Source: a virus. Taken from it: a stretch of 36,081 nucleotides of DNA. Under the pieces are notes generated by a model. The model saw only the letters and a program-made list of their open reading frames with translations. It had not been told where the DNA came from and did no database searches. The stretch spans positions 1-36,081 of IMG/VR virus record IMGVR_UViG_3300012925_000010. One strand, written 5' to 3'. Of the stretch, positions 2,458-36,081 are shown piece after piece (the stretch's first letter is position 1; every line of letters starts with the position of its first letter). The position numbers and the translations under genes were made by a program.

Positions 2458-5400
2458 TCAATCCTGTGCTGGAGGCGCCAAATTGCGCAGCGTATTGACG
2501 TGCTCTTTGCGAGACGAGGTCTGCCACGCATCGAGATAGCGATGACCCTCGCCGAGATCGCCCCAACGACCGGTGATGTCCTCCGGGTGGATAACGTATT
2601 CGCCGTCCGCTGCATAGATGGGGACCGCGCCGCCGCGCGCACGTTTCACCGGGTCTTTCGGCGCGGCGTGGCTCTTGGCCGAGGCCGGGAACATCTTGTC
2701 CAGTTTCTTGAAGCCAGCGAGTGTGTTGCCCTCTCCCATCGACGACACATGATCCGAAGTGAGCACATAGGCGCCGTCTGGCACCTCCATCGGCACCTTG
2801 TCGGCACGACCATCGGTGCTGCCCATAATGGCACCAACGTGCACCTTGCCGCCCTTGGCGCGCCGGATGCCACGGGCCACCTTCATCGCTGCGTTCACTC
2901 CGCCCCCTGCCGCGCGCTGGTCGCCGCGCATTGCATCCATCGCCGCGGGTGCGGCCATAGCGCCACCTAGCATGCCGGCACCGGCCTTGCCCGACAAAAC
3001 GAGATCGCGAGCCTGCTCTGGCGAGATGCGCAAGCGGCGTGCGGCCACCATGATCTGCTTCGCCAGCAGTTCAAGTTTTGGGGCGCCCAGCTCGCTCTCG
3101 ACGCCCGTCTGCGGCCCCAGCGCCGTCCATAGGCGGGCCTGCGCCGGCACGCTCTCCAAGCCAGCAGGGCCTGCCACCTCGTGCTGCCACCACGGCTGCA
3201 GCGTCTGATATTCGCCGCGTGAGAACGACCCCTGCACGTCGGTTGGCCCCTTGCGGGTATCGGAGAGCCCGACGCCGCGGCTGAAGTGCGCATCCCCAAC
3301 GGGGCCCGACGTCTGGAAACCGGTCTCAGGCACGCCCGAGGCGTGGGAATAGAGAGGAACCTTCGGTGCCTCACTCTGGATCGCTCCAGTGTCGAAGAAC
3401 TTCTGCATCGGGCCAGCTTGGGCCGTCCGATGATACGGATGGCCGCCGATGTACTGCATATCGCCGGGGAAACCGGCGGTGTTGTAGCGCATACCTTCGG
3501 GCACGCCGGCAAACTTGGTGAAGTCGGAGAACCTGCCCTGATTTTTCAGCCAATGCGCTGAGGTCCCGCGTTGGATTTCCGTCATCACGTCGGAGCCCGG
3601 AGATGCCATCGCGGTCGTGGTGTTCAGCGCCCTATAGCGCTTCGCCGCCTCCTCGGGGCCAAACATCTGCTCCATCCGTTTGTACACTGGGTCCATGATG
3701 TACCAAGCGTCGGCGGTGCGCAGACCTTCGTGGCGGCCGGCCTCGCCGAGGATGTCTTGGAGGCGCTGGGTGTTTTGAGGGGTCTGGATATTTTGCGCCG
3801 AAAGCGAGCCGCGCGGGTTGGAGGACAGCCGAAGATTCGGCCCCTCGTTACCAACGCGGCCCTTCGCCATGTCACGCAGGTCGCCGCGCGTAACGCCGAA
3901 CAATTGCTTCATCGCCGGGTCTTCGGGTCCCACGCGGGCGGCAGCCTCCTCGGCAATGATGCGAGGGCCACGGTAGATGCCGGGATACATCATGCGATGG
4001 GGCTCAGCGACTGTCTGGACCGATAGGTCCGGCGGATTCTCGACGCCCTTGTTGTAGATGTGGCTGCCACCCTCGGTGAACTCGGGCTCCGCGTACTTCC
4101 GTTGACGGACCTTGCGCGCCACCTCCATCGCCGAGCCGGTGTCGTCGGCCATGCGTCGCACCGGCCCCGACCCGAGAGCCATCTCGGACGGCATCATGCG
4201 CACGCCGGCGACGGCGCCGGTGCCCATCGTGTTCAACGCAGCATCGCGCGCCCAGCTTCGGGACAGCTTCCCGCGCTGGTCCTCGTACCAACTTGCTTCC
4301 TCCGACCCCTCCGGGTACGGGTTTTGGGCCATCAGTCGACCGGGCCCTCGGACCAGATCGGCGGCGCCCTCGGCTATATGCTTGACGATCGGATTGGCAA
4401 AAGTTTCCGGCATCATCGCCGCCTCGTCTTCCGGCGACAGATCGGCGGCTCCGCCCGAGGCGCGTACCTTCCTGGCAACACCGAGCGCATTGCTGACGGC
4501 GCCTCCGCGCGCACGGCGCTCGCCACCATCAGCGGCGGCAACGCCAGCGGCCGGGATACCGGCCACGCCATACTTGCGCAACACCTTCAGCATCTTGTCA
4601 TCGAACATCACATAGTTGCGTGATCCCCTCTGGCCCGGCGCGCGCGAGCCAGCGTCCGGATAGTGCAGGCCCGGCACACCGAGATCGCGCAGCCGCTGCG
4701 AGGCCCGCACATTACCCTCGGTCTCGTTTTTCGCCGGCAGGCCCATGCGCTTGTATATTTCATTACCTGGGATCGATGAATGACCGGCCTGCTCCAACGC
4801 CAGCAATCGACCCTCAAGACCAGCTCTAACGCCCGGCAACAACGGCTGCTTGGGTTTGTGATAGTAGTGGCCTCTCGCCAGCATGCTCTTGATGTCGTCG
4901 ACCCGCTTCTTGACGTGCGTCTCCATCGGAGGGCCGACGCGGTCCTGCACATGCTGGGACTGCTGGTTGAATGGAGCCGCGTAGTCGAGCATATGCTCCG
5001 GGTTCACGTCCATGCCGACCTGATACATATGGCCCGTCGAACGCTCCGGATCATTGAGATAGGCGATGCGGCGATCGTATTCCTTGATCATATTGGTGGT
5101 GGCTTTGTCGGTCTCGCCACCAGCGATCATATCGTCGCGCAGGCCAGCGTACTTGTGAGCGAGAAGCGCCGCGTCGCCCCCCACATCCGACAGGTGAGAC
5201 CCGATCGTCGATCCTACCTCCTGCAGCCGGTACTTCTTGAGCAGCGGGTCTTGCCGGGTGGCGAGTTGGTGACGGTACCACTCACTGACCGGCTCATGAC
5301 CAGCGAAGTAGAGCCCGTGGCCGTAGGCCTGATTCCCTTCACCCGAACCGATCTTGGAGATATCGAACCGATCGAACGAATGCGGCGTGCCGTGATAGAC

Positions 5401-19513: not shown

Positions 19514-20428
19514 CTAACTTGTTGGAAATTCGCCCCAAGCCGCGCGCGGGTCGTTGTAACCGAACGAGTAGCGCTCGTAGGCCTTGACCAGCAGGTTGTC
19601 GGTGATGTTGTCGACCCACATGTCGCTCTCGTACGGGATACGCATCATGTGGATCAGGCCCTCGATGTTGGTGGTGACGAACCACGCAAAGTTCGAGGTG
19701 AGGAAGTCCATCACCAGGAAACCTTCCGGCAGGCCGCCGGAGGTCGTTAGGATGGCGTTGACGTCGTTGTCGGCGGTGCCCGGTCGCAGTTCGGTCTTCA
19801 GCAGGCGGATCGCGACCGGCTGCAGGTTGACAGGGACGACCAGCCGGCGCGCGCGGGCCATGATCTTGAGACCGCGCTCGTTGACGAAGTTCGAGCGGAC
19901 ATTCGCCATGACGGCGAGGAGGCTCGATTCGTTGAGCGACTTCGGCACCGCGGAGGTGTTCGCCCACGTTCCGCTGTCCCACGGATGGTCGATCGCAAAC
20001 AGCGCCTTGCCGTCGCCGATCTGGGTGTTGTTGTAGATGTTGCCGAGATTGAGGACGTTGGCGCCCTGAATTTCCTTGAACTGCGCGAACGCCTCTTGGA
20101 GCTTCAGGTTGGTCGGGTTGAACTGCGCCTTGTAGAGGTTGTCGTCGATCGCCTTGCGGGTGATCGCGTAGCCCAGCGCCACCTCGATATGCACGAACGC
20201 CCAGGTGAAGCGCTCACCGGCGTTATTGTCGAACTGGGTTGCGGCGCCTTCATCCTTGAGGAAGGGCAGCGCGACGAAGGCCATCTGGGTCGAGCGCTCG
20301 ACGGCCATCGCCGACTTGTGGGTCTTGAAGACCTTGTCCCACTGACGTGGGATCATCTCGTAGGAGCCACGGACGTCGAACAGGCCCGGGAGCAGTTCGG
20401 AGCGGATGCTTGCAAGTGCGACGGGCAT
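19514..20428 (-). CDS. Major capsid protein
   Basis: This 304-residue protein starts at ATG after AAGGAAAGATTGATCA. It has the features of an HK97-fold major head protein: an N-terminal arm (VALASIRSELLPGLFDVRGS), an E-loop-like region (FLKDEGAATQFDNNAGERFT), the long spine-helix region around LKLQEAFAQFKEIQGANVLN, and the A-domain part GLKIMARARRLVVPVNLQPV AIRLLKTELRPGTADNDVN. The end contains the strand-rich NFAWFVTTNIEGLIHMMRIP. It builds the icosahedral head. The gene order scaffold, minor proteins, capsid agrees. A GroES-like gene upstream may help it fold. The assignment is from size, position and pattern. Confidence 0.85.
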   Translation of the reverse strand: MPVALASIRSELLPGLFDVRGSYEMIPRQWDKVFKTHKSAMAVERSTQMAFVALPFLKDEGAATQFDNNAGERFTWAFVHIEVALGYAITRKAIDDNLYKAQFNPTNLKLQEAFAQFKEIQGANVLNLGNIYNNTQIGDGKALFAIDHPWDSGTWANTSAVPKSLNESSLLAVMANVRSNFVNERGLKIMARARRLVVPVNLQPVAIRLLKTELRPGTADNDVNAILTTSGGLPEGFLVMDFLTSNFAWFVTTNIEGLIHMMRIPYESDMWVDNITDNLLVKAYERYSFGYNDPRAAWGEFPTS

Positions 20429-20891: not shown

Positions 20892-21662
20892 TCAGGCGCC
20901 CAAGGTCGTCTTGAAGATTTCGTTGTTGAACGTCACAACGGCCCAGCCGAACGGCGTGGTCGGGTCGTTACCATTGCCGATCTGACCGAAGTTGCCCGAA
21001 TTGGTGACCGGGGCGACAACCTTGAAGGGACCCGTGGTGTTGTTCAGCGTGGCGAGCGTCGACTGATCGACGGTCGCGCCGGAGAAACCGTTGATGAGAT
21101 TGCCGACGCCGATCGCGAACCCAACGGTCTCGCCAATATTCGCGGTAACGAGCGAAGTATTGAGCGCTGCCGCCATGAATAGCGCATTGGGCGCATTGAT
21201 GATGTAGGCCGTGGCATTCGAGCCGGCCGCGCCGGGCCAGAACGGTGACCACTGCGGCGTCCCACCGACAGGGGTATACATGCAGCCGTCGAACACACCG
21301 GCGATGATGACGGTGTTGGACGAGCCCTGCTCAATATTGCCTGTGGCAGTGTTGTAGATGACCGGGTCGCCGCGGAAAATCTTGGTGGCGTTGCTCGACA
21401 GGATCGTACCCGTCGCCAACTGATAGTCGGGCGATCCGCCGGAGGTGTATCCGATGTGACGGAAGCCAAAAGCCGTTGCAGTGTTGGCCACGAGGAATCG
21501 CTCCGGTGTTCGGAGGCCGCTTCCAGCTCGCATGGCTTGAAGGTACGCCTTGGGTTTCGCCCGACGCGCGGCTTGCGGTCGGTAGAGTGGCAGGGCGTCT
21601 GCCGGGTCGATCGGGCTGCTAGAGCGGATCAACCGTGCTGCATTTTGCAGCGTCGGAATCAT
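20892..21662 (-). CDS. Capsid decoration-like protein
   Basis: This protein of 256 residues is read from the ATG at 21660-21662, 41 bases after the glycosyltransferase stop; the longer frame upstream would overlap that gene and has an Arg/Cys-rich shadow composition. The basic N-terminal arm (LPLYRPQAARRAKPKAYLQA) precedes a beta-rich body: TATAFGFRHIGYTSGGSPDY, TKIFRGDPVIYNTATGNIEQ, TVIIAGVFDGCMYTPVGGTP QWSPFWPG. The last 90 residues contain NIGETVGFAIGVGNLINGFS and FGWAVVTFNNEIFKTTLGA. I associate this type of protein with abundant head-surface proteins of alphaproteobacterial phages. Its place just upstream of the capsid gene supports that. Confidence 0.75.
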   Translation of the reverse strand: MIPTLQNAARLIRSSSPIDPADALPLYRPQAARRAKPKAYLQAMRAGSGLRTPERFLVANTATAFGFRHIGYTSGGSPDYQLATGTILSSNATKIFRGDPVIYNTATGNIEQGSSNTVIIAGVFDGCMYTPVGGTPQWSPFWPGAAGSNATAYIINAPNALFMAAALNTSLVTANIGETVGFAIGVGNLINGFSGATVDQSTLATLNNTTGPFKVVAPVTNSGNFGQIGNGNDPTTPFGWAVVTFNNEIFKTTLGA

Positions 21663-21703
21663 CCCTACAGCAAAAGTCCCGACGCTGTCAACATCCTGTG
21701 ACG

Positions 21704-22447
21704 TTACTCGGCGGCGGCGCCATCCAATCTTTGGTCGATCTTGGCCACCCGAGCATCGATCTCGGTTTGCTGATAATCTAGCTCGCGGCTTTTGGCAAAG
21801 CACCCCACGAATGCATGCGGCCCTTCGTGCGTGAACGTATAGGCAGTCGAGGCCCATACTTTGCCGCCGGTCTCACGGAAACGCCGGCAAAATGAGATAT
21901 CCTCGCTGACCTTGCCCTCCGCTACGCGCAGGCAATCGAAGAACCCGAATGTCCGAGCAGCTCCCGCGTAGCGCAGATCAGGCAGCGTCATGTAGGGCCG
22001 GATCAGTTCGGGGAATTTCTCAATCATCGCGGTAACCGCATCGCGTCGGATCAGCAGACAACCGGCGCCAAGTCCGTCAACCTCGATGAATCCCTGCCGA
22101 TATTCTGGCGCTTCAGCACCGCTCACGACCCATCCCATCGGGTAAGTCTTCTTGGGGTAAATGCCACCAACCAGAGGCTCGTTGAAAGTCAGCATATCGA
22201 GCACAGCTTGTGGCGGGAATCCGACGTCGGCATCGAGGAACAGTAAATGCGTTGAATCGGGGTGGACGTCGTACCACCACGTCAGCACCATATTGCGAAT
22301 TTCCTCGATATCAGGCCAAGAGAACGAGGCGATGCTGGCATTGATCCCTTTGGAAGCCATCGCGCTCATGAGCGAATGGCTGGTCTCAAAGGTCGTGGTG
22401 GTGATCTGTCGACCGAAGGCCGGGATAAAGACGAAAATCTTAGCCAT
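21704..22447 (-). CDS. GT-A type glycosyltransferase
   Basis: This 247-residue protein starts at the ATG of a TGATG overlap; a GTG one codon earlier is less likely. The N-terminal strand KIFVFIPAFGRQ, the stretch HLLFLDADVGFPPQAVLDML with the metal-binding DAD motif at residues 72-74, and the later VSEDISFCRRFRETGGKVWA match a GT-A fold, family 2-like transferase that uses a nucleotide sugar and a divalent metal. GGIYPKKTYPMGW follows the DAD motif as in related phage enzymes. Being between minor head genes, it may glycosylate a capsid or fibre protein; modification of host envelope or phage DNA is the alternative. The acceptor cannot be told from sequence. Confidence 0.85.
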   Translation of the reverse strand: MAKIFVFIPAFGRQITTTTFETSHSLMSAMASKGINASIASFSWPDIEEIRNMVLTWWYDVHPDSTHLLFLDADVGFPPQAVLDMLTFNEPLVGGIYPKKTYPMGWVVSGAEAPEYRQGFIEVDGLGAGCLLIRRDAVTAMIEKFPELIRPYMTLPDLRYAGAARTFGFFDCLRVAEGKVSEDISFCRRFRETGGKVWASTAYTFTHEGPHAFVGCFAKSRELDYQQTEIDARVAKIDQRLDGAAAE

Positions 22448-22647
22448 CACTCTTCCTTAGTGAAAATGTACGTGGTGCCATCCGGCCTCTTGCACTGGAA
22501 CGTTGAGATCGTATTGTTGCAGTCAATGGTGGGCGTGGTGGGGCGGCAAAATACCTTGCCATGGTCAGGCTCCGGATCACACACCGCCACAGGGACGCAC
22601 ATCAAGAGCGTGCGCGCCACCGAAACCAGCGTGCAAATATCGGCCAC
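22447..22647 (-). CDS. Small cysteine-rich protein
   Basis: This 66-residue protein starts at GTG directly after the stop of the previous gene and ends in a TGATG overlap with the glycosyltransferase gene. It has six Cys residues in MADICTLVSV, LLMCVPVAVCD, GKVFCRPTTP, TIDCNNT and STFQCKRPDG. The first 20 residues are hydrophobic with a short core (VSVARTLLMCVPVAV), possibly an export signal or membrane anchor, and the rest could be a disulfide-bonded domain. I do not recognise it. Coupling on both sides supports a real gene. Confidence 0.7.
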   Translation of the reverse strand: MADICTLVSVARTLLMCVPVAVCDPEPDHGKVFCRPTTPTIDCNNTISTFQCKRPDGTTYIFTKEE

Positions 22648-23373
22648 CTACTCCTCAAAGCCAGCGTCACCTTCGGCGACCACGTCCGGCCGCGGGATAT
22701 CCTTGCCGAAGTCGATATCCATCTTCAGGCCTCCGGCGTTGCCGCGGCGCGCCGCGACGCCAGCCCCAGGGAGCGACTTCTGAGTCATCCGCAGCGCGTC
22801 GGTGCGGTCGCGCAGCAGGGCGCGGGCGATCTGCTCGTCCTCGCGTGAAGCTTCCTTCGTCAGCGACGCCGGCCGCTCCTCCAAGCGCAGGCCCTGCACC
22901 ACGATGTCGCCCTCGTAGCCGACCGGTGTCCACCGGCCCGCATGCCGTGACGCCGGCACCGCGCGCCAGCCGTTCTGATACATCAGCAGGTCACCCTGCA
23001 CGATCTCACCGATCGGCTTGTTGAGGATGGTTACCGGGTTCCACTGGTAGGACCATCCATGCGGCACCTCGCTCATCGGCAGGTCAAGTGGGTCACCAGA
23101 AGCGATGCGGCGCCGGGTGAGGTGCGCACCGTCGCGGCCCACGGCGACGATCGATCCATCCCGCGGGTTCTCGCGGGTGGTATCACGGGGGGCCTCGGCA
23201 CGCGGCGGCACCGGGCGCGGCGCGGCGCGGCGGATACCGGGAGCCGCCTCGGCCTGCTGGCGCAGTTGGGCCGGCGGCGTCGTAACGCGGGTGTTCTTCT
23301 TGCGCTTTTTCATCTTGGCACGTGTCGGGACGCGGGTGATCTGCGGAGCATCTCCGCCCATCGGGTCATTCAT
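22648..23373 (-). CDS. YQW-family phage protein, copy C
   Basis: This 241-residue protein overlaps the previous gene by eight bases. Residues 1-80 are basic and disordered (KMKKRKKNTRVTTPPAQLRQ). Then comes the block shared with the genes at 23366-24106 and 25817-26494: SGDPLDLPMSEVPHGWSYQW NPV, later NGWRAVPASRH, GDIVVQGLRLEERPASL, followed by a charged helix (EDEQIARALLRDRTDALRM). The tail is acidic (DIDFGKDIPRPDVVAEGDAG). I recognise the block as recurrent in alphaproteobacterial podovirus genomes, but no function is established. Repeated near the scaffold gene, it may serve in head assembly. Confidence 0.8.
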   Translation of the reverse strand: MNDPMGGDAPQITRVPTRAKMKKRKKNTRVTTPPAQLRQQAEAAPGIRRAAPRPVPPRAEAPRDTTRENPRDGSIVAVGRDGAHLTRRRIASGDPLDLPMSEVPHGWSYQWNPVTILNKPIGEIVQGDLLMYQNGWRAVPASRHAGRWTPVGYEGDIVVQGLRLEERPASLTKEASREDEQIARALLRDRTDALRMTQKSLPGAGVAARRGNAGGLKMDIDFGKDIPRPDVVAEGDAGFEE

Positions 23374-24106
23374 CGGGGGTCTCCTTCAGGGATTTACGCA
23401 CGTTTCCGACCGCAATCGGCAGCAGGATGGCACGGAGAGTAGGCCACCATGGTGCCCCCTTGTTGGCATCCATGGCGGCATAGAATTGGTCGGCCACCGG
23501 GCCCGGAGCGAGAGTGCGATCCTTGCGCACCACCTCAGACTCCAGCCGATCACGCTCCTTGAAAATGCGATCGATGTATGGAGCCATGTCCTTGGGAATA
23601 GGGCCGATGGTCTCGATCGTTTTGGTGGACTGTCGCTTGAATACCGAGGCGGGAGGTTTGCCGATCTCGTGCTCCTCCAACGTATCCAGCTTGCCGGTCT
23701 CAGACTGCGTCCCAATCCGGACATCGCCGGTGAGGTCAATCGCCGCGGCTCTCATCCTCCAATCGTCAATGTTCTGCTGCGCCTTGGTGCGCGCCTGCGC
23801 CTGCGCACGGCTAACGATCTCCGCAGACTTCTCGCACAGTCGCAGGCCACCTCTTTCGACGTCGCCGGGCGTGCCCCACGGGGCGAACACTCCCTCGTGC
23901 CGCGAGTATGGCACCGGAGTCCACCCCGATGCGGCCTCCTTCACTTCGACGTCTGGGCTGATCGGATTCCATTGGTATGACATGCCGCGCGGGATCATGG
24001 TCAGCGGGATATCGTAGGGATCACCGCTGCGGAGCGCGACCGTGTAGCCGGCACCCCACAGATCGTGCAGCTGGTCGATCGTCAGGATGTCGGTGACGGC
24101 GCTCAT
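23366..24106 (-). CDS. YQW-family phage protein, copy B
   Basis: This 246-residue protein starts at an ATGA overlap with the zinc-binding gene. The shared block occupies residues about 20-110: RSGDPYDIPLTMIPRGMSYQ WNP, then SGWTPVPYSRHEGVF, GDVERGGLRLCEKSAEIV, followed by an Ala/Gln-rich helix (SRAQAQARTKAQQNIDDWRM). The C-terminal half is unique: FKRQSTKTIETIGPIPKDMA, then FYAAMDANKGAPWWPTLRAI. It is one of three diverged copies in this window, all within 4 kb. Function is unknown. Confidence 0.8.
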   Translation of the reverse strand: MSAVTDILTIDQLHDLWGAGYTVALRSGDPYDIPLTMIPRGMSYQWNPISPDVEVKEAASGWTPVPYSRHEGVFAPWGTPGDVERGGLRLCEKSAEIVSRAQAQARTKAQQNIDDWRMRAAAIDLTGDVRIGTQSETGKLDTLEEHEIGKPPASVFKRQSTKTIETIGPIPKDMAPYIDRIFKERDRLESEVVRKDRTLAPGPVADQFYAAMDANKGAPWWPTLRAILLPIAVGNVRKSLKETPDE

Positions 24107-24372
24107 GATACTCGCCTCCTGCGCTGATAGTCCCTAGCCATCGCACGGCCCTTTTCGAGATTGGCATAATACCACTTCAAACACTTTTCCCGATGAGCCT
24201 GCGGATTAGCCCTGATCCGAGCATTCTCATGCATGCGACGACATCCCAAGCACATGTGAGTACTCGTATATCGAGGAATATGATGACCATTTTTGCATGG
24301 CCTCCCCTCGTAGAAGAACTTGATCCCGAGCTTGGCTGCCTCAGCTTTTGTCAAGATGTAGGGGAAACTCAT
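24103..24372 (-). CDS. Zinc-binding CxxGH...CxxC protein
   Basis: This 89-residue protein starts at ATG five bases after the scaffold gene stop and ends in an ATGA overlap. It shows a zinc-binding pattern CKNGHHIPRY then HMCLGCRRMH, with C26, H30 or H31, C41 and C44 as ligands, followed by a basic helical part (HREKCLKWYYANLEKGRAMA). The same N-terminal module (LTKAEAAKLGIKFFYEGRPC) precedes the nuclease part in many phage endonuclease VII/HNH-type proteins. Here no HNH catalytic core follows, so this may be a stand-alone DNA-binding module or the remnant of a mobile endonuclease. Confidence 0.75.
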   Translation of the reverse strand: MSFPYILTKAEAAKLGIKFFYEGRPCKNGHHIPRYTSTHMCLGCRRMHENARIRANPQAHREKCLKWYYANLEKGRAMARDYQRRRRVS

Positions 24373-24377
24373 GGCGG

Positions 24378-25373
24378 CTATACTTCAAAGCTTGACTTGT
24401 CATAAAGCCCGGCCTTTTTGCCCTCATGCTTGCGGCGGGCCATCTCGGCGAGGCCGATCGGATCACCCTTCTTGAAGCGGTTCTGGCCGGTGGGATCGTC
24501 GTAGTTCCACTGGAGCGTGCCATCCGTCGCCGACAGGGCCTCGCCCGCCGTCAGCTTCACCGTGGTGCCGCCATTGAGGCCGCCGCCGCTGCCGCCACCC
24601 GGCGCGGCCCCCGAGCTGGGACGCCGGCCATCTCCCTTGCCGCCACCATCAGGTTCCGGGGTCGATTTCTTCATCTTCACGCCGTCCTCGATCCGCTGGA
24701 AATATTCCTCGCTGTCAAGCGCGACGTCGTCGGCCACCGCCAGATTGTGCGCCGCCATCATGCGGGCGTTCATTCTGGGATCGGTGATGCACTCCGGGTG
24801 TGCTCTCACCCAAGCGGCCGACTTCGCTGATAAGGTCGCCGCGGTTGCCTCCACCGGATCGGCCGCCTGCCGGCGCTGCGGAGCTTGCCGAGCGTTGGGG
24901 TCGCCACCGGCGCCCTTCCTGGTGGCCACGTCCTTCAAGTCCTCACGGGCCTCGGTAAGGCGCTGGAGGTTACCTTCCGAGCGGGCGATCAGCCGCTGCG
25001 CGCGCGCCATCGCCGCGCCATCGCCCGCCTCGAACGCCACGGTATAGGCCTGCTCGGCCTGCTGGGCCTCGGCCTCGGCCGCAGCGATGCCGCTCTCGAC
25101 CGTGCCGAGCTGGCTGGTGACGACTTGGCTCTCGGCACGCTGCAGCCGCTGGTGGGTGTCATCGAGTTGCTGTTTGGTGGCCTGCCCCTCGGCGACCACC
25201 GTGCGCAGCTGGCCGCTCATGGCCGAAAACTGCTTCTTGAGGTCGGCAACCGGGTCTCCGTCATCGTCGTTGAACGATACGCTTCCGGCGCCAGTCTTGC
25301 CTTCTTCAGCCTTCACCAGCGTGGTCGAGGTGTCGCCCTGCAGGTTGATGATCACGTCGTCATTGTCAGCCAT
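24378..25373 (-). CDS. Scaffold-like head assembly protein
   Basis: This 331-residue protein starts at ATG behind AAGGGGAATAGCG; a frame 12 codons longer is less likely. The N-terminus is acidic (MADNDDVIINLQGD, later VSFNDDDGDPVADLKKQ). A long coiled coil follows (QLRTVVAEGQATKQQLDDTH, then AAAEAEAQQAEQAYTVAFEA and IARSEGNLQRLTEAREDLKD). The middle has AWVRAHPECITDPRMNARMM. A Gly-rich linker and the C-terminal tail KKGDPIGLAEMARRKHEGKK AGLYD end the protein. Acidic start, long helix and basic C-terminal tail, upstream of the capsid gene, are typical of internal scaffolds that bind the capsid shell. Family membership cannot be proved by eye. Confidence 0.7.
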   Translation of the reverse strand: MADNDDVIINLQGDTSTTLVKAEEGKTGAGSVSFNDDDGDPVADLKKQFSAMSGQLRTVVAEGQATKQQLDDTHQRLQRAESQVVTSQLGTVESGIAAAEAEAQQAEQAYTVAFEAGDGAAMARAQRLIARSEGNLQRLTEAREDLKDVATRKGAGGDPNARQAPQRRQAADPVEATAATLSAKSAAWVRAHPECITDPRMNARMMAAHNLAVADDVALDSEEYFQRIEDGVKMKKSTPEPDGGGKGDGRRPSSGAAPGGGSGGGLNGGTTVKLTAGEALSATDGTLQWNYDDPTGQNRFKKGDPIGLAEMARRKHEGKKAGLYDKSSFEV

Positions 25374-25410
25374 CGCTATTCCCCTTTGGGCTTGTTGCGC
25401 TGTTGGCACA

Positions 25411-25827
25411 TCAGAAATACGCCTCCGGGTCCTCGACGCGCATCAGAATGCGGCTGTCGTCGAACAGACGGCACGGCACGCCGTTGATGAACATCGCGAC
25501 GCCATCGGAAGCCACGAACATCACCCATTCGCCGATCTTCAGCGTGTCGCCGTGAAACTGTGCGATATTGTCGTCCTTGAAGGCACCCTTGCCGAGCCCG
25601 ATCACGAGACCCACCGTGCCCTGATAGCGGTCCTCCTCGATCACCTGATCTGGCAGCTCGACGCCACCTGCAGTCCTCGACGGGCGGATGTAGCCGGCCA
25701 CCAGAACCTTGCTGTGGAAAACCTTCGTGGCATGCTTGCCGAGGGCCTTCAGGATCGCCTTCTTCGGGTCAACCGAGGACCGGGCGATCTCGCGCATCTT
25801 CACGACGACATTGGAGCTACGGGGCAT
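25411..25827 (-). CDS. GroES-like co-chaperonin
   Basis: This 138-residue protein overlaps the previous gene by 11 bases. Residues about 36-138 follow the Cpn10/GroES pattern: a first strand SKVLVAGYIRPS, a mobile-loop-like RTAGGVELPD (compare the AGG-IVL loop of GroES that docks on GroEL), TVGLVIGLGKGAF, then LKIGEWVMFVASDGVAMFIN and the final DDSRILMRVEDPEAYF. A basic 35-residue N-terminal extension precedes it. It is longer than the usual 95-100 residues. T4 gp31 is the known example of a phage co-chaperonin needed for capsid folding. Here the neighbours are scaffold-like and capsid genes, so the same role is likely. Confidence 0.85.
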   Translation of the reverse strand: MPRSSNVVVKMREIARSSVDPKKAILKALGKHATKVFHSKVLVAGYIRPSRTAGGVELPDQVIEEDRYQGTVGLVIGLGKGAFKDDNIAQFHGDTLKIGEWVMFVASDGVAMFINGVPCRLFDDSRILMRVEDPEAYF

Positions 25828-26494
25828 TGGATTCCTTGAAGTTGTTGATCGGAGAAAAACTCAGATTGACCGTCTCGTAGACAACCTCCGGCGCGAACGG
25901 ACTTATAGGCCCCAAGACCGGCCGCTCCATCAAGATGCGCCTGCGAACATATTCGTTCAGGGTCAGCTTGAGATAGGTCGCGGCGCTCTGCCAGCGCACA
26001 GATACCCTCATAAGCAGCGTGACGGCCACCTCGACGGGCGGACCTTCATTCTGCTGAGCCTCGGGAATGGTCTCGCCCTGTACGACCCAATCGGCCGGCA
26101 TGATGTAGAAGCCCTTGCCGGGGTCGATCACGCCCATGGTTTTTTCGAGGGCTTTGGCCTTGTCCGTAAGGGCGGATAATTCTTTCTTGACATGCTCGGC
26201 CGGAATTTCGCAGAGCATCAAACCATCAATCGAGATGAAGCCGCTGGCGTTCCTCGCACTGTCCGGGAAATCGTGGGCATGGCGGCTGTAGGGGACCGGG
26301 CGCCACCCGGAGCTTGAATCGCAGCAGCCAACGATCCACTGATAAGCCCAACCGACCGGCAGCTTGCTTTTGTCGAGATGGAACGGGTCGTTCTTGAACT
26401 CGATATGGCGAAGCTTCGGCGTTCGCTTCCGGGTCCTTGCCTTTGACGCGATCTTGCGCGGGGCTTTCCTCACTGGCCGGCGGGGCCGCTTCAT
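25817..26494 (-). CDS. YQW-family phage protein, copy A
   Basis: This protein of 225 residues is read from the second ATG at 26492-26494, because AGGG then lies nine bases upstream; the ATG at 26503 touches AGGG directly. A strongly basic N-terminus (KRPRRPVRKAPRKIASKART) is followed by the shared block NDPFHLDKSKLPVGWAYQWI, SGWRPVPYSRHAHDFP, FISIDGLMLCEIPAEHV and a charged helix. The C-terminal part is unique: EVAVTLLMRVSVRWQSAATY, then RPVLGPISPFAPEVVYETVN. It is the first transcribed of three related genes and lies directly before the co-chaperonin. Function is unknown. Confidence 0.8.
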   Translation of the reverse strand: MKRPRRPVRKAPRKIASKARTRKRTPKLRHIEFKNDPFHLDKSKLPVGWAYQWIVGCCDSSSGWRPVPYSRHAHDFPDSARNASGFISIDGLMLCEIPAEHVKKELSALTDKAKALEKTMGVIDPGKGFYIMPADWVVQGETIPEAQQNEGPPVEVAVTLLMRVSVRWQSAATYLKLTLNEYVRRRILMERPVLGPISPFAPEVVYETVNLSFSPINNFKESNAP

Positions 26495-26542
26495 CGGGTG
26501 CATCCCTGCGTAACGCCGACCCCGGCATGGGGTGGCTGGAGG

Positions 26543-26779
26543 CTAAGCCTCAAGTATCTGCTGTGCTTCCTTGCAGAAATAGATCGCGATGTCGAGACCT
26601 TCAATCTTTCCACGGCGCGCGCGGTACTCGTCGAACGTCTTGCATTCAATCTTCGCCAGCTCCTCGACCGCAGCGGCGCGCGCGGTCTGGAGGAGCTGGA
26701 GCAGGTTGCGCGCGAGCGCGTGATGGTCGCCCATGAACTCGCGCACCGGGTCCTTCTCGGTGATGCCACGCAGCGCCAT
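26543..26779 (-). CDS. Small helical protein
   Basis: This 78-residue protein starts at the ATG of a TGATG overlap with the Pro-rich gene. It is almost entirely helical (DHHALARNLLQLLQTARAAA, then VEELAKIECKTFDEYRARRG and LDIAIYFCKEAQQILEA). I do not recognise a named family. Its coupling and position upstream of head genes suggest a small assembly or packaging factor, but nothing proves it. Confidence 0.75.
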   Translation of the reverse strand: MALRGITEKDPVREFMGDHHALARNLLQLLQTARAAAVEELAKIECKTFDEYRARRGKIEGLDIAIYFCKEAQQILEA

Positions 26780-27480
26780 CAGTATTCCTTCGCCTTCTTC
26801 AGCCGCCCGAGCCCACCACCGGCGCCGCCGGGCAGCTTGGTCGCCTTGGCAACGGCCCCCGGCGTGCCGCCCTTCATAACGACGCCCTTCACGGCGCCAC
26901 CAGTGTTGAACGAGACCACGCCGCCGCCCGTGGCAAACGTGACGACCTTGCCGCGGTTCATGTTCTTGATGTCGACCGCCTTGGCCTTGTCGTGCTGGAC
27001 CGGGGTGCCGACATCCATTCCGATCGCCTTGACGCCCTTCACGCTGCCGCCGCGGGCGCGCATTGGCATGCCCGGAGGAGGGCCACCGGGAGGCATTCCA
27101 GGAGGACCGCCCATCGGGCCACCTGGAGGCGGCAGCGCGCCCGGCGGGGGTCCTGGAGGCGGTGGCGGGGGTCCTGGAGGCGGCATCATTACCGGCGGTG
27201 GCGGCGGCGGAGCCTGCTGGCCGCCGGTGATCACGTTGACCACCGTGGTGCCCTTTTTGACCTTGCCGCCCGAGGCGCGGTGGGGGCGATCCATCCGCTG
27301 CGCGGCCTTCACGCCACCGATGTCGCCCAAAGACTTGCCGATCATCTTCTTGATCAGCGTCTTGTCCTGCTCGGCATCGGCGTGAACCGCGCCGCCTTTG
27401 GCATATTGCTTGGTGATCTCTCCGACGCGGGAGCGCTCGACGTTGCTCTGCCGGAATTTGTTGAACGGATGGCCTGCCAT
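26779..27480 (-). CDS. Pro/Gly-rich basic protein with RAxGG motifs
   Basis: This protein of 233 residues is read from the ATG at 27478-27480 with GAGGA seven bases upstream; a frame 17 codons longer has no ribosome site. Residues 1-60 are charged and helical. Residues 90-140 are a Pro/Gly/Met run (PPPPPPVMMPPPGPPPPPPG and on to PPGGPPPGMPM). Around it lie AKGGAV, RASGGKVKKG, RARGGSVKG and GGAVKGVVMKGG. It is basic and probably disordered. Its Lys/Arg-Gly-Gly pattern recurs in three other genes of the window. It may be an internal head protein or DNA-binding packaging protein. No fold is recognised. Confidence 0.75.
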   Translation of the reverse strand: MAGHPFNKFRQSNVERSRVGEITKQYAKGGAVHADAEQDKTLIKKMIGKSLGDIGGVKAAQRMDRPHRASGGKVKKGTTVVNVITGGQQAPPPPPPVMMPPPGPPPPPPGPPPGALPPPGGPMGGPPGMPPGGPPPGMPMRARGGSVKGVKAIGMDVGTPVQHDKAKAVDIKNMNRGKVVTFATGGGVVSFNTGGAVKGVVMKGGTPGAVAKATKLPGGAGGGLGRLKKAKEY

Positions 27481-27565
27481 CTCGGGTCCTCGTTTGGGCG
27501 CCCGGCCCGGGCTGTCAGTCGTGCGATCCACGCTTATGACACGGAATCACTATGACGTCACGTCG

Positions 27566-27703
27566 TTATAGGAATGGCCACTTCGGCCTTCCCTCCGGAA
27601 ACGATACCCACACATATCGGCCAAGCCGGTTGATCTGGAAATCGTCCCACCGCTCGCGACGAGAATGCCAGAACAGCATCGCTATAGCCTTGCGACGACG
27701 CAT
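27566..27703 (-). CDS. 45-residue basic protein coupled to the portal gene
   Basis: The portal stop and this ATG overlap as TAATG at 27703. The frame reads MRRRKAIAMLFWHSRRERWD, then DFQINRLGRYVWVSFPEGRP, and ends KWPFL before TAA at 27566-27568. It is rich in Arg and Trp and does not look like random frame reading of a GC-rich sequence. A start at the second Met (codon 9) is possible. Function is unknown; it may be a portal or packaging accessory. Confidence 0.65.
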   Translation of the reverse strand: MRRRKAIAMLFWHSRRERWDDFQINRLGRYVWVSFPEGRPKWPFL

Positions 27704-30180
27704 TACCGCTTTTTCTTTGGCTTCTGGCCGCCGGCCGGCTTCGGCGAGTGCATGGCCACATGCCTTGCCACGTCGGCTTGCTGCTGCTGAATGCCGACCT
27801 TGGCGCCCTCGGTGTCGGCCTTCGTGACCAACTCCCGTTCGGCCAGATCGCGATCCTTCTGATCCATACCGACCTGATGGCCAAGCTCGGCGCGAGCGAG
27901 GCCATGGTCGGCGCCGTCCTTTGCCATCGCGTGCTGGGCCTGCACCTCAGCGAGACCGTGCTGACGTGATTCGAGGTTCATTTTGTGCGCAGCTTGGGCG
28001 CTGGCGAGACCGTGCTCCAACCCTCTCTGCTGCAGATCGGCGCGCGTCTTCATCGCGTCGCCGGTGACCTTCGTGGCGTCGAGCGCCTGCTGATTCGCGT
28101 CCTTGGCGAGCCCAGCGACATCCATCTGTCGCTGATGCGCGGCATCTTCGCGGTCGCCTTCGTGGGTGATCAGAGCCTTGGCAAGGTCGATCGTCTTGCC
28201 CTTGATCGATGCGGCGCTCTTGATCTGCTCCAGCATCGGCTTCTGGGCATTCTCGGCGGCATTGACCTTGGTGGCCTCCATCTTGGCTTCGGCCTCCTTG
28301 CCCTTCGCGATCGCGGTGAGCGTGTCGGCATCCGGCGGAGGCGGGTTCGGGTCTTTCGGCAGAACGAGGCCCGCGGCCTCCTCCCGCATCGCGCTCAAGA
28401 CGCGGCGCAGCACCTCGTGCATATCCATCAGCTTGCCGAGCGGCGTGTTGGCCAATTCGACCAGCGCCACTGCCTTCATGACGCGGTGAATGTGGCTCGG
28501 GACGTTGGGGTCCGACTTCGGCACCAAACTGCGCTCGTCGAGCGCTTGGATCAGCTTCTGAACGGTCCAGTAGCCCTTCGAGCCCTTGTTGCCCTTCCAG
28601 AACGCCTCCGGGTTTTCGCGGAACAAGTCGGCATAGAGCGACAGCTCCTCGTCGAGCGCGCGGTGCTGGCCCTTGTGGGCAGCCGCCATGACCTTGGTGG
28701 TCTGCTCGATATGCGCCAGCATGGTGCCGACCGGGATGTTCTGTACGCCCTCGCCGACCGGCACGTCCGGCGCCCCGCCTACCGCCTTGGACTGCTCGGT
28801 AATCTTGTCCATCAATTGCATGAGGCCGGCCCCAGCCTCCTTGTACGGAAGGTTGGCGACCACCTCAGTGATCGGGCGCCCACCCGTCTCGATCAGGACG
28901 CCCTCACCGGGTGCGGCGCGGAAGTTCGAGGTGTTCTGCCGCCCCGCCAGCTTGTCGAGCAGGAACGCCGGGAAGTTGGCAAACATGCCGGCATCGAGGC
29001 ACATGCGCCACGCCGCGGTCATCGCCGCGGAGGCGTTGCCGAGGATGTTGACCAAGCCGGTGCCATAGAAGCCGGGGCCTGGAACATACGGATATTTCAC
29101 ATACATTTTCTTGCGGCCGCAGTCTTCATCCTCCGGCTTCCAGTCGCGACGGATCGCCAGGATGGCCATGGAATCCTTATCCATCGTGACCAGATACGGC
29201 AGCGGCACGCCCTTGCCCTTGAACTCCTTGGGTGCGAAGTCGTCGAGGTCTAGCTCGCACTGCGTTTCCCACAGCGTATAGGGCATGTCCTCGGGGCGTT
29301 GCTTACTCGACGACATGCCCTGGGTCTGCGCAATCTCCTCAGCGACCTGATTGGTGGCCGGTGTCGGAGGCGCCAGCGCGATGTCGCGATAGATGCCCTT
29401 GATCTGATAGCGCTTCATATCGGTCTGCCGCATCGTGATGACGTGGGTGATTCGCTCGCAGGCGTCGAAGTCCTTGGTGGCGTCGGAGACGATCAAGTTC
29501 TCCGGCGACACCGCCTCCGAATAGGGACGCTTCTTGAGCGGGTGGGTGTAGACCTTCTTGAACCCAGAGCCACCGAAATAGCAGCCCCACAGCAGCATGT
29601 GCGAGGTCTCAGGCCCGAACTCGGTCGCGGTCGTGGTCAGGTAGTAGTTCATGTCGCGCTGCAACGCCTCGCCCAGTTCGTCCTTTTGCTGTGACGGCAG
29701 GTCCGAATAGTCGGCGATCTTGCAGGGCCCTTCGGCCGGTAGCAGCTCCGCCTGCGCGTTGGCCCAGCCGCGGAGCACGCCGTCTAGCAGCAGGGGGTTG
29801 GTGACAACGGACTGGCCGTCGACCGGGGAGGCGCCGTCACTGTTTCTCGGGTCCTCCATCTTGAGCCCGAGGAGGTCCATGCCGGCGGCCCGGTTCGCCA
29901 GCCACTCGGCACGGGACTGGTCGTCGGCCTCGATCGCCTCGTGGAGGTTGTTGGCGATCGTCATCAGCTCGCCTTCGCCGATGCGCTTTACGATGTTCTC
30001 GTAGAACTTGGCGGGGTCGTCGGCGTCACCCTGATCCGCGCGTGGCGGGTTAAGCTGAACGACGACGCCGCCGTCCTCGGTCGGGATCGAGATGGTGCCA
30101 TCTGCATCGGTGTGGACGTTGTCCTCGCCATCTTCGATGATGACGTGGATATCCTCGTTCGCGAGCGCGGTATCAGCCAC
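27703..30180 (-). CDS. Portal protein with extended repeat tail
   Basis: This 825-residue protein starts at GTG. It has the layout of podovirus-type portal proteins: an acidic N-terminal arm, a helical wing (NNLHEAIEADDQSRAEWLAN RAAGMDLLGL), the crown/stem region with MLLWGCYFGGSGFKKVYTHP, SPENLIVSDATKDFDACERI, YVPGPGFYGTGLVNILGNAS, and the C-terminal helices GVQNIPVGTMLAHIEQTTKV. Twelve copies form the ring through which DNA is packaged and ejected. Residues 640-825 are a long Ala/Lys/Gln-rich coiled barrel-like tail with three 18-residue repeats and a basic end (GGQKPKKKR). It is longer than most portals (about 500-720). The gene lies just after terminase, as usual. Confidence 0.9.
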   Translation of the reverse strand: MADTALANEDIHVIIEDGEDNVHTDADGTISIPTEDGGVVVQLNPPRADQGDADDPAKFYENIVKRIGEGELMTIANNLHEAIEADDQSRAEWLANRAAGMDLLGLKMEDPRNSDGASPVDGQSVVTNPLLLDGVLRGWANAQAELLPAEGPCKIADYSDLPSQQKDELGEALQRDMNYYLTTTATEFGPETSHMLLWGCYFGGSGFKKVYTHPLKKRPYSEAVSPENLIVSDATKDFDACERITHVITMRQTDMKRYQIKGIYRDIALAPPTPATNQVAEEIAQTQGMSSSKQRPEDMPYTLWETQCELDLDDFAPKEFKGKGVPLPYLVTMDKDSMAILAIRRDWKPEDEDCGRKKMYVKYPYVPGPGFYGTGLVNILGNASAAMTAAWRMCLDAGMFANFPAFLLDKLAGRQNTSNFRAAPGEGVLIETGGRPITEVVANLPYKEAGAGLMQLMDKITEQSKAVGGAPDVPVGEGVQNIPVGTMLAHIEQTTKVMAAAHKGQHRALDEELSLYADLFRENPEAFWKGNKGSKGYWTVQKLIQALDERSLVPKSDPNVPSHIHRVMKAVALVELANTPLGKLMDMHEVLRRVLSAMREEAAGLVLPKDPNPPPPDADTLTAIAKGKEAEAKMEATKVNAAENAQKPMLEQIKSAASIKGKTIDLAKALITHEGDREDAAHQRQMDVAGLAKDANQQALDATKVTGDAMKTRADLQQRGLEHGLASAQAAHKMNLESRQHGLAEVQAQHAMAKDGADHGLARAELGHQVGMDQKDRDLAERELVTKADTEGAKVGIQQQQADVARHVAMHSPKPAGGQKPKKKR
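27853..28014 (-). repeat. Three 18-residue repeats in the portal C-terminus
   Basis: Codons 723-776 of the portal gene encode three consecutive units of exactly 18 residues: HGLASAQAAHKMNLESRQ, HGLAEVQAQHAMAKDGAD and HGLARAELGHQVGMDQKD. A fourth partial unit starts RDLAEREL. An 18-residue period equals five helical turns, so equivalent His-Gly-Leu-Ala faces stack along one side of a helix. This is likely part of a coiled barrel above the portal crown. Confidence 0.85.
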
Positions 30181-31548: not shown

Positions 31549-31665
31549 TCACTCCCCCTCGCGGGGCCCCGGAAACAGCCGCAGGCAGTCTTTCTGGGAG
31601 CAACCGACCCGCTCGCTGGCCGACTGAGGTGTCCCGTCTCCGGAGGTAAGCCACACGCTTATCAT
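31549..31665 (-). CDS. 38-residue protein coupled to terminase
   Basis: The ATG at 31663-31665 overlaps the terminase stop as ATGA, and TGA lies at 31549-31551. The frame reads MISVWLTSGDGTPQSASERV, then GCSQKDCLRLFPGPREGE. It has two Cys residues, a helix-like centre and a charged end. A longer frame across the same bases (31493-31744) is Arg-rich and is rejected as a shadow. Translation is likely coupled to terminase. Function is unknown. Confidence 0.65.
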   Translation of the reverse strand: MISVWLTSGDGTPQSASERVGCSQKDCLRLFPGPREGE

Positions 31666-33467
31666 GCTCGTGCTGTCGGGTAAAGTGGCCTGAGCTTCTT
31701 TTTCGGCATCGCGGCCTCAAGCTGGGCAATTCGTACCTCGTCATCCGATCGCAGCAAGCCGTTGGCGCGCAGATGCTTGATAGCCTGCGTCATGGCGTCG
31801 ATAAGGTCCTTGTATTTGCCCTTGGGAAACACGGCCATCTCCTCCAGCGTCTTCTCGCCCCAGTCGCGCAGCGGATAGGGCACGTAGATCATGCCTTGGG
31901 AGAACGATGGCTGCACCGCCAGCGCGCGCGCGACCTTGTCCAGCCCCTTGGGGTCGACCAGCTGAATGCCCCAGCCGGCCTTCGGATGGCTGTCCTGCAG
32001 CGTCTGCGCGGCCGAGATGCCGGAGGCCTTGGCCTCGATCAGCAGACGGTCGGCCTTGAAGCGGATGCAGGTATCCGCGACCCAGTCGGTCAGGCCCCAT
32101 GCTTTCTGCTGCCGCATGCGGAACGCCATCGCCTTCTCGCCCGGCTCTGGGATGACCTTCGGCGACGAGAACCGCAGCCGGCGGCGCCAAGCATGCATCA
32201 GCATCGCGCGGTTGAAGCCATTTTCGTTCTCCCATATGCCAACCACCACCGCGGCACTCGGGTCGTTCTGTTCTTTCTCGGTGAAGGCCGAATCGATCGA
32301 CACCACGACATAGCTGAACGGCGGGAACTTCTGGTCGACCGGCTCCCACGGCTGCCACCACTCCATCTCGAAGATGGCGTCACCACGGACCTTGGGGGTC
32401 TGCTGGTACTGGCCGGCCCAAGCATAGGGACCGGCATCCTTTTTCATCGACGGGATGATCGCGTCCGGGAAGCGCTCCGGCCACGCCAACTCGCCGTCGC
32501 AATCTTCCGGCCTCTCGCGCCAGCGCGGATCGCTCCACCCGATCACGGTCTGCAGCGGCCCGCCGTTGTCGTTGGCGCCCCACACGAACTCCATGGCGAT
32601 CAGCAGATGGCACCAGTCACCCAGATCGACGATGACCGTGCCGGAGACGTCTTCTTCGTGAACCCGCTGCATGATCACGACCTTGGCGCCCGTCTCCATA
32701 TTGTTGAGGCGCGACGACATCGATTCCCGGAACCAGCGGATGGTTTCCTTCCTGGTGACCTCGGATTCGCTCTCCTTGACGTTGTGGGGGTCGTCGAGAA
32801 TCACCCGGTCGCCGCGCTCGCCCGTGCCGACGCCGCCGACCGAGGTGGCCAACTTCCAGCCGTGCTTCCAGTTCGAGACCTTCTTCTCCCCAGTCTTGCG
32901 CACGATGACGAGCTGGTCATCCTCCTTTGCGGCGCTGGCGCCGTATAGTTCCTGATATTCCGGAGAGGTGATCAGGTCCTTGAATTTGAGGTTGTCACGC
33001 TCGGTCAGCGACGACGAGTAGCTGAAGGCCACGTAGCGCAGATGCGCCAGCTCCATCGGGCCCCATTCCCACGCCGGCCAGAACACGTCCGTCAGCAGCG
33101 ACTTCATGAAGCCGGGGGGCACATTGATCAGCAGCTTGGTGATCTCGCCGAAGGTCACCGCCTCAAGGTGCTCACAGACCGCCTCTAGAGCCCACCCATC
33201 GACGAATTTCGTCCCGGGCTCCAAGATGTGCCAGAAATAGCGGACGAAGCTGAGCAGCCCTCCCTGCCACACGCCATCGGAATCCCGATAGCCGCGGGTT
33301 TTGTGCTCGGCCTTGGCGCGGCGCTTGCGTACTTCGGCGGCGAGGCCGAGGAACCGCTCCATCTCTTGGCGCGATGGCTGCCGGTTGGCACGGATCGGGA
33401 GCGGCCGGCGCTCGTTGGTGACGAAACGCCGGCTGCGCACCGCCTCATAGCGCAGCTTGGGGGTCAC
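31662..33467 (-). CDS. terL: Terminase large subunit
   Basis: This 601-residue protein starts at GTG in a GTGA overlap. It is the packaging motor: an N-terminal ATPase pumps DNA into the head and a C-terminal nuclease cuts the concatemer. The Walker A-like loop is LINVPPGFMKSLL (residues 113-125), the Walker B is RVILDDPHNV (221-230, with D225-D226), and GDRVILDDPHN is preceded by the GGVGTGERGD stretch typical of TerL proteins. The nuclease shows a first acidic site in VVVSIDSAFTEKEQ (D392) and a later one in GKYKDLIDAMTQAIKHL. It is the most secure assignment in the window. A recognisable small terminase is not seen upstream. Confidence 0.97.
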   Translation of the reverse strand: MTPKLRYEAVRSRRFVTNERRPLPIRANRQPSRQEMERFLGLAAEVRKRRAKAEHKTRGYRDSDGVWQGGLLSFVRYFWHILEPGTKFVDGWALEAVCEHLEAVTFGEITKLLINVPPGFMKSLLTDVFWPAWEWGPMELAHLRYVAFSYSSSLTERDNLKFKDLITSPEYQELYGASAAKEDDQLVIVRKTGEKKVSNWKHGWKLATSVGGVGTGERGDRVILDDPHNVKESESEVTRKETIRWFRESMSSRLNNMETGAKVVIMQRVHEEDVSGTVIVDLGDWCHLLIAMEFVWGANDNGGPLQTVIGWSDPRWRERPEDCDGELAWPERFPDAIIPSMKKDAGPYAWAGQYQQTPKVRGDAIFEMEWWQPWEPVDQKFPPFSYVVVSIDSAFTEKEQNDPSAAVVVGIWENENGFNRAMLMHAWRRRLRFSSPKVIPEPGEKAMAFRMRQQKAWGLTDWVADTCIRFKADRLLIEAKASGISAAQTLQDSHPKAGWGIQLVDPKGLDKVARALAVQPSFSQGMIYVPYPLRDWGEKTLEEMAVFPKGKYKDLIDAMTQAIKHLRANGLLRSDDEVRIAQLEAAMPKKKLRPLYPTARA

Positions 33468-35003: not shown

Positions 35004-35414
35004 CTAACTGGCTTGAGCCACGCAAGTTCCATGAAGATACCCGGCCACGAGCGCCTTGCTCTCTTCCGGCATCCTATAGCCCAGCCCCCACACCGTCTCA
35101 ATGACTACGCCGAACTTTTTCAGCTTGCGGCGGGCCTTGCAGATGTAGACGTCGACGATCTTGATCTCGGGGACAGTATTGCCCGTGGCATCGCGCGTCA
35201 CCGCGATCAGCAGCCCCTCCTTGGTGACGAGATCGCGGCTTACCAGCATGGCGATGATCTTCCCCTCCGATTCAGTGAGGCCGAATATCAGCGGCACTTC
35301 GATCCGCAGCCCGATCTCTGCCTCAAGCCAAGCCACTCTGGCACGGAGGGTGTCGTTCTCGGCCTCGACCGCGGCGACGTAGCTATCACGCAATGCGTTT
35401 GACGGATGGATCAT
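35004..35414 (-). CDS. CtrA-type winged-helix DNA-binding protein without receiver domain
   Basis: This protein of 136 residues is read from the ATG at 35412-35414, overlapping the end of the ParB-like gene; a longer upstream frame is Arg-rich and lacks a ribosome site. A short coiled coil (VEAENDTLRARVAWLEAEIG) is followed by an OmpR/PhoB-type winged helix: LTESEGKIIAMLVSRDLVTK, then PEIKIVDVYICKARRKLKKF and VIETVWGLGYRM. The recognition-helix and wing parts are close to alphaproteobacterial CtrA (PELKIIDVFICKLRKKL and IETVWGRGYVL, from memory). No phosphoreceiver domain is present. CtrA controls cell cycle and is phosphorylated in its receiver. This protein could bind CtrA sites constitutively or regulate phage genes. 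The regulatory target is inferred. Confidence 0.85.
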   Translation of the reverse strand: MIHPSNALRDSYVAAVEAENDTLRARVAWLEAEIGLRIEVPLIFGLTESEGKIIAMLVSRDLVTKEGLLIAVTRDATGNTVPEIKIVDVYICKARRKLKKFGVVIETVWGLGYRMPEESKALVAGYLHGTCVAQAS

Positions 35415-36081
35415 TGAGAAGCCTGCTCCAGCGCTCGACCAGCGCCCTCCAAAGGGTGATCTTCTGGGCTCTTGACGCAGCATGCGCCATCAGCATGGCG
35501 TTGTCTCCATCAATCCGGATGATGGCCGACAGCGCCTCCAAATCGACCTTGGCGTCTCCGATGCACAGCATATGCTCCACGGCGCGTATCTCATGGGCCG
35601 AGATCGGGGCCCTCTTCGCCTTGACAAGTGTTTCGAGGACGCGCCGGGCCTGCATCGGGCCGCGCCGGTCGACCAACCCTCGCACAGTACCGACCGCCAT
35701 GGTGTCGCCCTCGGCCACCGCAGTATACTGGCTGATATTGCGCAATCTCACCCCGGCCCGCTTGAGTACCGCCGCGCATTCGTTCGCTGAGGGGTCTCCG
35801 GAGGCCACCAAGGCGCGATAGATATCCAGCGGTGACACCATGATGCGATCGGAGTTGTGCCCCACGAAGGCCCGCGCGCGCTCGTCGATCCCCTCGGCCA
35901 GCACCACGAACACCGGGATCGCATCGACCCTCAAGGTGGCAGCCACGATCGCGGTGTGCTGCCCATCGATCACATGCAGCTGGGCACCGGCGCGCACCAC
36001 GATTGGCGGCTTCATCCGGTTCCACGAAAATTCCGTCAGCATCTTCTCGATCAGCGCCATCGAGCGTTTCGACAGGTTCCG
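35386..36081 (-). CDS. ParB/Srx-fold protein (5' end outside window)
   Basis: The frame is open to the right edge, seven codons before the ATG at 36058-36060, reading RNLSKRS, which is a common lead-in of ParB-like domains, so the true start lies beyond the window. The ParB/sulfiredoxin-like core is seen in WNRMKPPIVVRAGAQLHVID GQHTAIVAATLRVDAIPVFV. In classical ParB the equivalent box is GERRxRA or GEHR; here it is DGQHTAI. ParB-like phage proteins bind DNA, or act as CTPase or nuclease. The C-terminal two thirds are helical (ALVASGDPSANECAAVLKRA, NISQYTAVAEGDTM) and could be DNA binding. The gene is followed at once by the CtrA-type regulator. The end at 35386 overlaps that gene by 29 bases. 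Confidence 0.8.
   Translation of the reverse strand, partial: RNLSKRSMALIEKMLTEFSWNRMKPPIVVRAGAQLHVIDGQHTAIVAATLRVDAIPVFVVLAEGIDERARAFVGHNSDRIMVSPLDIYRALVASGDPSANECAAVLKRAGVRLRNISQYTAVAEGDTMAVGTVRGLVDRRGPMQARRVLETLVKAKRAPISAHEIRAVEHMLCIGDAKVDLEALSAIIRIDGDNAMLMAHAASRAQKITLWRALVERWSRLLNDPSVKRIA

What the first reader, a model, noticed from the sequence alone, without database searches (positions are those of the whole stretch)
22648..26494. Three diverged copies of one unknown family around the scaffold gene
Genes at 25817-26494, 23366-24106 and 22648-23373 share DP-x-x-L/I...P-x-G-x-x-YQW, G-W-x-x-V-P-x-S-R-H and G-I/V-x-x-x-G-L-x-L-x-E, then a charged helix, but have different N- and C-terminal parts. 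Duplicates kept in one head module suggest related but distinct partners, for example three positions in a procapsid or three steps of assembly. The family has no known function that I can name.
Basis: seen in the sequence. Interest (0 to 1): 0.7.

Follow-up and report, generated by a model that had tools for sequence, protein, structure and literature searches.

The report
Three related phage head-assembly proteins
A virus of bacteria carries three diverged copies of a small protein that hundreds of related viruses mostly have only once, beside the genes that build the head; nobody knows its job, but one extra copy ends like a scaffold protein, which points to work inside the forming shell.

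Summary
A (25817-26503), B (23366-24106) and C (22648-23373), all on the minus strand, share one ~90-residue domain far beyond chance. Predicted models of B and C show the same fold in that block; A was not modelled. The family is not private to this phage. C is its core form, present once in most related phages and sitting between the scaffold gene and the cement and major-capsid genes. Cultured Pelagibacter, Roseobacter and Planktothrix phages carry it as phrog_36003 (function unknown). B and A are accessory extra copies, gained or lost separately (C alone, B+C, A+C, A+B+C). The tails differ: B ends in three helices; A ends in a motif that matches, in both search directions, the C-terminus of related scaffold proteins, a motif that recurs at the end of the phage Mu I/Z scaffold. 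Most likely C is a scaffold-coupled procapsid assembly factor, and A and B are specialised versions attached through different tails. Neither location nor function was tested experimentally. Best called a new variant of a known but uncharacterised family.

The parts
22648..23373 (-). C: core member (241 aa); unstructured N-terminus 1-90, shared domain about 94-200, short C-terminus; orthologous in position to phrog_36003 proteins
23366..24106 (-). B: accessory copy (246 aa); shared domain about 29-122, then two strands and a three-helix C-terminal tail; overlaps C by 8 bases
25817..26503 (-). A: accessory copy (228 aa; alternative start 26494); basic N-terminus, shared domain about 39-118, scaffold-like C-terminal segment about 152-203; overlaps the GroES-like gene by 11 bases
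24378..25409 (-). Scaffold-like gene (343 aa), the conserved upstream neighbour of the family; its C-terminus is an elaborated form of the end seen in relatives
   Evidence: position; C-terminal ends; Mu I/Z comparison of the plain form of the motif
25411..25827 (-). GroES-like co-chaperonin, conserved in the module
   Evidence: Pfam Cpn10 1.2e-4, phrog_3188 4.7e-7
20892..21857 (-). Probable cement (decoration) gene, by position next to the capsid gene and by resemblance to the genes at that place in cultured relatives
   Evidence: synteny; no family match
19514..20428 (-). Major capsid protein, Mu gpT class
   Evidence: Pfam Mu-like_gpT 1.1e-5, phrog_371 7.5e-9
27703..30180 (-). Portal protein
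   Evidence: phrog_1216 2.6e-11; SU10_portal 29.5 bits, just under its cut-off of 30

Best explanation
The shared block is one small alpha/beta domain (strand, helix, GW-x-x-VP-x-SRH loop, strand, long charged helix). C is the core, mostly single-copy form: a scaffold-coupled head-assembly factor, made together with the scaffold and most likely working with it inside the procapsid, on or near the inner face of the shell. B and A are accessory duplicates in which the domain is joined to other tails: B to a three-helix tail, A to a basic N-terminus and a C-terminal segment resembling the presumed coat-binding end of this scaffold type. The tails would bring the same domain to different partners or sites. 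Shown: the family, the fold of the block in B and C (predicted), the gene position, the copy-number pattern, the likeness of A's tail to scaffold ends. Inferred: location inside the procapsid, binding to capsid or scaffold, division of labour between copies.
For: C or its relative lies directly after the scaffold gene and before the cement and capsid genes across the module. A's tail profile hits the very ends of scaffold genes and almost nothing else below E 2 in 19,399 ORFs (ORF count); in reverse, three A-type proteins (two of them near-identical) are the first hits after the scaffolds. hhalign 92.8%, score 32.5, against at most 13.8 in 200 column shuffles. The scaffold-end profile matches the end of Mu I/Z at 12.4 bits, shuffles at most 4.0; the capsid protein is of the Mu gpT class. 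In P22 the C-terminal helix-turn-helix of the scaffold binds the coat protein (PMC9965877). Same fold in B and C. Overlapping genes suggest coupled translation.
Against: No member has been located in a procapsid or virion, and no partner is known. The single hits between A's tail and scaffold ends are weak (E 0.01-2); the case rests on both directions and the profile comparison. The window's own A was not among the hits of the reverse search, and the window's own scaffold has an elaborated end. That the scaffold end binds the capsid in these phages is by analogy to P22. B's tail shows no such likeness.
Confidence: 0.5

Rival explanations
1. The family is a minor virion protein that stays in the mature head (inner or outer decoration, or a vertex protein), and the three copies occupy different positions in the shell.
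For: Conserved place next to cement and capsid genes; highly conserved aromatic and SRH residues, as for a binding surface.
Against: A separate cement-like gene is already present beside the capsid gene. No virion proteomics of a relative was found. A's scaffold-like tail fits an inner, assembly-time role better.
Confidence: 0.25
2. The family is an adaptor for folding of the capsid protein, working with the phage GroES-like protein next to it.
For: A GroES-like gene is present in the module in every inspected phage, and A lies directly before it with overlapping ends.
Against: The scaffold gene, not the GroES gene, is the constant neighbour of C. No sequence or structural likeness to a chaperone was seen.
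Confidence: 0.1
3. A and B are DNA-binding regulators of the head genes, with A's tail a ribbon-helix-helix.
For: A has a very basic N-terminus and a strand-helix-helix-like C-terminal sequence.
Against: No Pfam RHH match. hhalign scores A's tail 16.3 against a small RHH profile of three sequences and 32.5 against scaffold ends (the RHH profile is shallow). B's tail is modelled as three helices.
Confidence: 0.07
4. B and A are decaying or neutral duplicates without a function of their own.
For: They are absent from most relatives, and B is less conserved than C: identity to L007 is 59% for B and 73% for C.
Against: Open frames, kept motifs and dN/dS of about 0.07-0.34. A recurs in five loci and B in about twenty.
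Confidence: 0.06

Closest known systems
phrog_36003 (e.g. Pelagibacter phage HTVC027P gp57 and HTVC023P gp38, Roseobacter phage CRP-902 gp59, Planktothrix phage Pag-Yong1 UMO75981.1)
   Same: Same place between scaffold-like and cement-like genes; matches the C profile at 1e-9 to 1e-15.
   Different: One copy per phage in those inspected; the window has two extra copies with other tails. The window's own A, B and C do not reach significance in the PHROG scan.
Phage Mu I/Z protease-scaffold
   Same: C-terminal motif matches the scaffold ends of the single-copy phages; capsid protein of the same class.
   Different: A shares only this short end with scaffolds; Mu has no gene between Z and T in the inspected annotation.
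P22 scaffold gp8, C-terminal helix-turn-helix
   Same: Functional parallel for a short helical C-terminal end as the coat-binding part (PMC9965877).
   Different: No sequence relation tested; analogy only.

Membership tests
phrog_36003 superfamily (scaffold-downstream protein of unknown function) | Profile similarity over the shared block | tested here: met
   C-family profile matches five cultured-phage or complete-record members at 1e-9 to 1e-15, which are phrog_36003. Direct PHROG scans of window A, B and C were not significant; relatives L037 and L041 were weak, 0.002-0.003.
phrog_36003 superfamily (scaffold-downstream protein of unknown function) | Gene placed directly after the scaffold gene and before cement and capsid genes | tested here: met
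   Met by C, and by B between scaffold and C; A lies before the GroES-like gene instead.
Phage scaffolding protein (as a class, for A) | Scaffold-type C-terminal end | tested here: inconclusive
   Reciprocal profile likeness, but single hits are weak and window A itself was not a hit in the reverse direction.
Phage scaffolding protein (as a class, for A) | Binds capsid protein and is needed for procapsid assembly | not testable with these tools
   Needs binding and assembly assays.
Ribbon-helix-helix DNA-binding protein (for A or B) | Significant RHH profile match | tested here: inconclusive
   No Pfam RHH match for A- or B-type proteins; hhalign 16.3 to a shallow three-sequence RHH profile.

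The most novel reading that the evidence does not exclude
A and B are targeted co-scaffolds: the phage duplicated a conserved scaffold partner and gave one copy a scaffold-type coat-binding end, so that one domain is placed at chosen sites of the growing procapsid. This would be an unrecognised layer of head assembly whose core component (C, phrog_36003) is shared by abundant marine phages.
Probability: 0.25. Interest if true: 0.7.

Novelty: new variant of a known kind. Interest (0 to 1): 0.48.

Why it matters
The single-copy form is a conserved, unexplained head-module gene in HTVC023P-type pelagiphages, CRP-901-type roseophages, Planktothrix phages and many uncultured phages. Natural duplicates with swapped tails, one of them scaffold-like, give a concrete and testable hint about where this protein acts.

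Tried and rejected
Pfam and PHROG scans of A, B, C gave no usable name; the SpoIISB antitoxin hit on B (19.5 bits, cut-off 27) is below threshold and was rejected. tblastn of A, B, C in the phage collection found one relative only. PDB sequence searches with the C, B and A profiles gave nothing credible. PDB structure searches gave no match below E 1 for C, and only Z about 4 for both models (winged-helix-like chains for C, sigma-factor and retroviral-capsid helices for B's tail), read as common arrangements. A scan with A alone found no relative and the A alignment was too diverged for a scan. I first took A's C-terminus for a ribbon-helix-helix, and B's for the same fold with a longer loop; the profile comparisons and B's model (three helices) did not support this. 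The genome-contig scan returned six MAG contigs, probably phage contigs in MAG bins, so no host is assigned. Papers on HTVC023P-type and CRP-901-type phages name capsid and GroES genes but say nothing about this gene in the passages read; searches for Pag-Yong1 and QDWS535 found no paper. In the tree of the domain B groups together and four of five A copies join B, but on long branches and with few columns, so the duplication order is open.

Full report
What is there. The window is a 36,081-base IMG/VR virus record with a head module on the minus strand: terminase 31662-33467, portal 27703-30180, a proline-rich gene 26779-27531, A 25817-26503, a GroES-like gene 25411-25827, a scaffold-like gene 24378-25409, a small ORF 24103-24372, B 23366-24106, C 22648-23373, a glycosyltransferase-like gene 21704-22450, a probable cement gene 20892-21857, and a Mu gpT-class capsid gene 19514-20428. 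A, B and C share a block with scores of 112-174 against shuffle maxima of 57-65.

The family. A profile of the block gave 388 relatives in viral contigs, of which the best 80 were kept; further scans added loci. Of 187 loci examined, 158 hold one copy, 22 two and 4 three. Some loci are fragments and some contigs are near-duplicates, so the numbers show a trend only. Where the whole module is visible the patterns are C alone, B+C, A+C (L013) and A+B+C (window, L023, L028); L195 is a further A+B+C locus. C is therefore the core form.

Known relatives. The capsid protein has 25 related records in the phage collection. In the eight inspected (seven named phages and one uncultured record, MW202796.1) the order is portal, GroES, scaffold-like gene, a gene encoding 137-184 residues, a cement-like gene, capsid gene. 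In five of them (HTVC023P, HTVC027P, CRP-902, Pag-Yong1, DSL-LC04) that gene matches the C profile at 1e-9 to 1e-15 and is phrog_36003, function unknown. In Caulobacter phage RW, Alcaligenes phage QDWS535 and MW202796.1 the gene at this place is not significantly matched by the C profile; RW alone has a weak phrog_36003 hit (0.0019). MW202675.1 (uncultured) also carries a member between scaffold and capsid genes.

Fold. C was modelled with 72 sequences: residues 1-90 at low confidence with almost no regular structure, then strand 107-113, helix 121-133, helix 141-144, strand 162-168, helix 169-200, the core at pLDDT above 90 for the most part. B was modelled with 31 sequences: strand 42-48, helix 53-60, helix 67-70, strand 88-94, helix 95-122, then two strands and three helices. 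The order of elements in the block is the same, and both models match the same uncharacterised phage proteins (A0A6J5L7U1, A0A6J5QBS5, A0A6J5PIP5, A0A6J5T7U0) with probability 1.00. B's alignment contained C-type rows and the reverse does not hold, so the two models are not fully independent. No solved structure is close. A was not modelled.

The tails. A's C-terminal profile, built from four A-type proteins, was run against 19,399 ORFs from the loci (ORF count); a fifth A-type protein, in L195, was found. After these the hits with E below 2 are almost all the very ends of scaffold genes, E 0.02-1.4 each. In the other direction a profile of 71 scaffold ends ranks three A-type proteins (L028 0.0088; L023 and L195, near-identical, 1.8) as the first hits after the scaffolds; the window's A was not among the hits. 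hhalign gives 92.8% and score 32.5; 200 column shuffles reach at most 13.8; a three-sequence ribbon-helix-helix profile scores 16.3. The same scaffold profile matches the last residues of Mu I/Z at 12.4 bits, with shuffled Mu I at most 4.0. In P22 the C-terminal helix-turn-helix of the scaffold binds the inner surface of the coat, and removal of 11 C-terminal residues abolishes binding (PMC9965877). B's tail matches neither A's tail nor scaffold ends.

Selection and coupling. dN/dS is 0.07 for A (one close pair), 0.17-0.34 for B and 0.08-0.26 for C. B overlaps C by 8 bases, the small ORF overlaps B by 4, and A overlaps the GroES-like gene by 11, which suggests coupled translation.

Reading. 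The evidence supports one conserved head-module protein (C) and two accessory duplicates with other tails, one of them scaffold-like. A role inside the procapsid is the most economical reading, but it rests on position and on a short motif; a virion protein is the main rival. No experiment on any member was found in the papers searched.

Noticed in passing
L030:9310-9792 and L119:7174-7773; L210:9309-9860: In two relatives the second copy of the family is fused behind a twin-arginine-like signal peptide (SRRxFLGGLLSAxAAPAxV); in a third, a stand-alone ORF with such a signal lies directly before the single family gene.
   Followed up: partly
window 24103-24372: Small 89-residue ORF with paired cysteines inserted between scaffold and B, overlapping B by 4 bases; matches phrog_1081, function unknown.
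   Followed up: partly
window 24378-24560 (end of the scaffold gene, minus strand): In the window's clade the scaffold end is elaborated to VKLT..EA..ATDGTL.WNYDDP.G...FKKGDPIG..EMARRK....GLYD, where single-copy phages have a plain VRLT..E..MA..MGMTPEEYA end.
   Followed up: partly
window 21704-22450: Glycosyltransferase-like gene (phrog_1574, 4.9e-21; weaker glycosyltransferase families) kept between C and the cement gene in many relatives.
   Followed up: no
window 35386-36060: ParB-like gene at the window's right end (phrog_1033, 1.2e-6).
   Followed up: no
window 2458-7359: Very long ORF (1633 aa) with repeated RASGG/RARGG-like stretches, not identified here.
   Followed up: no
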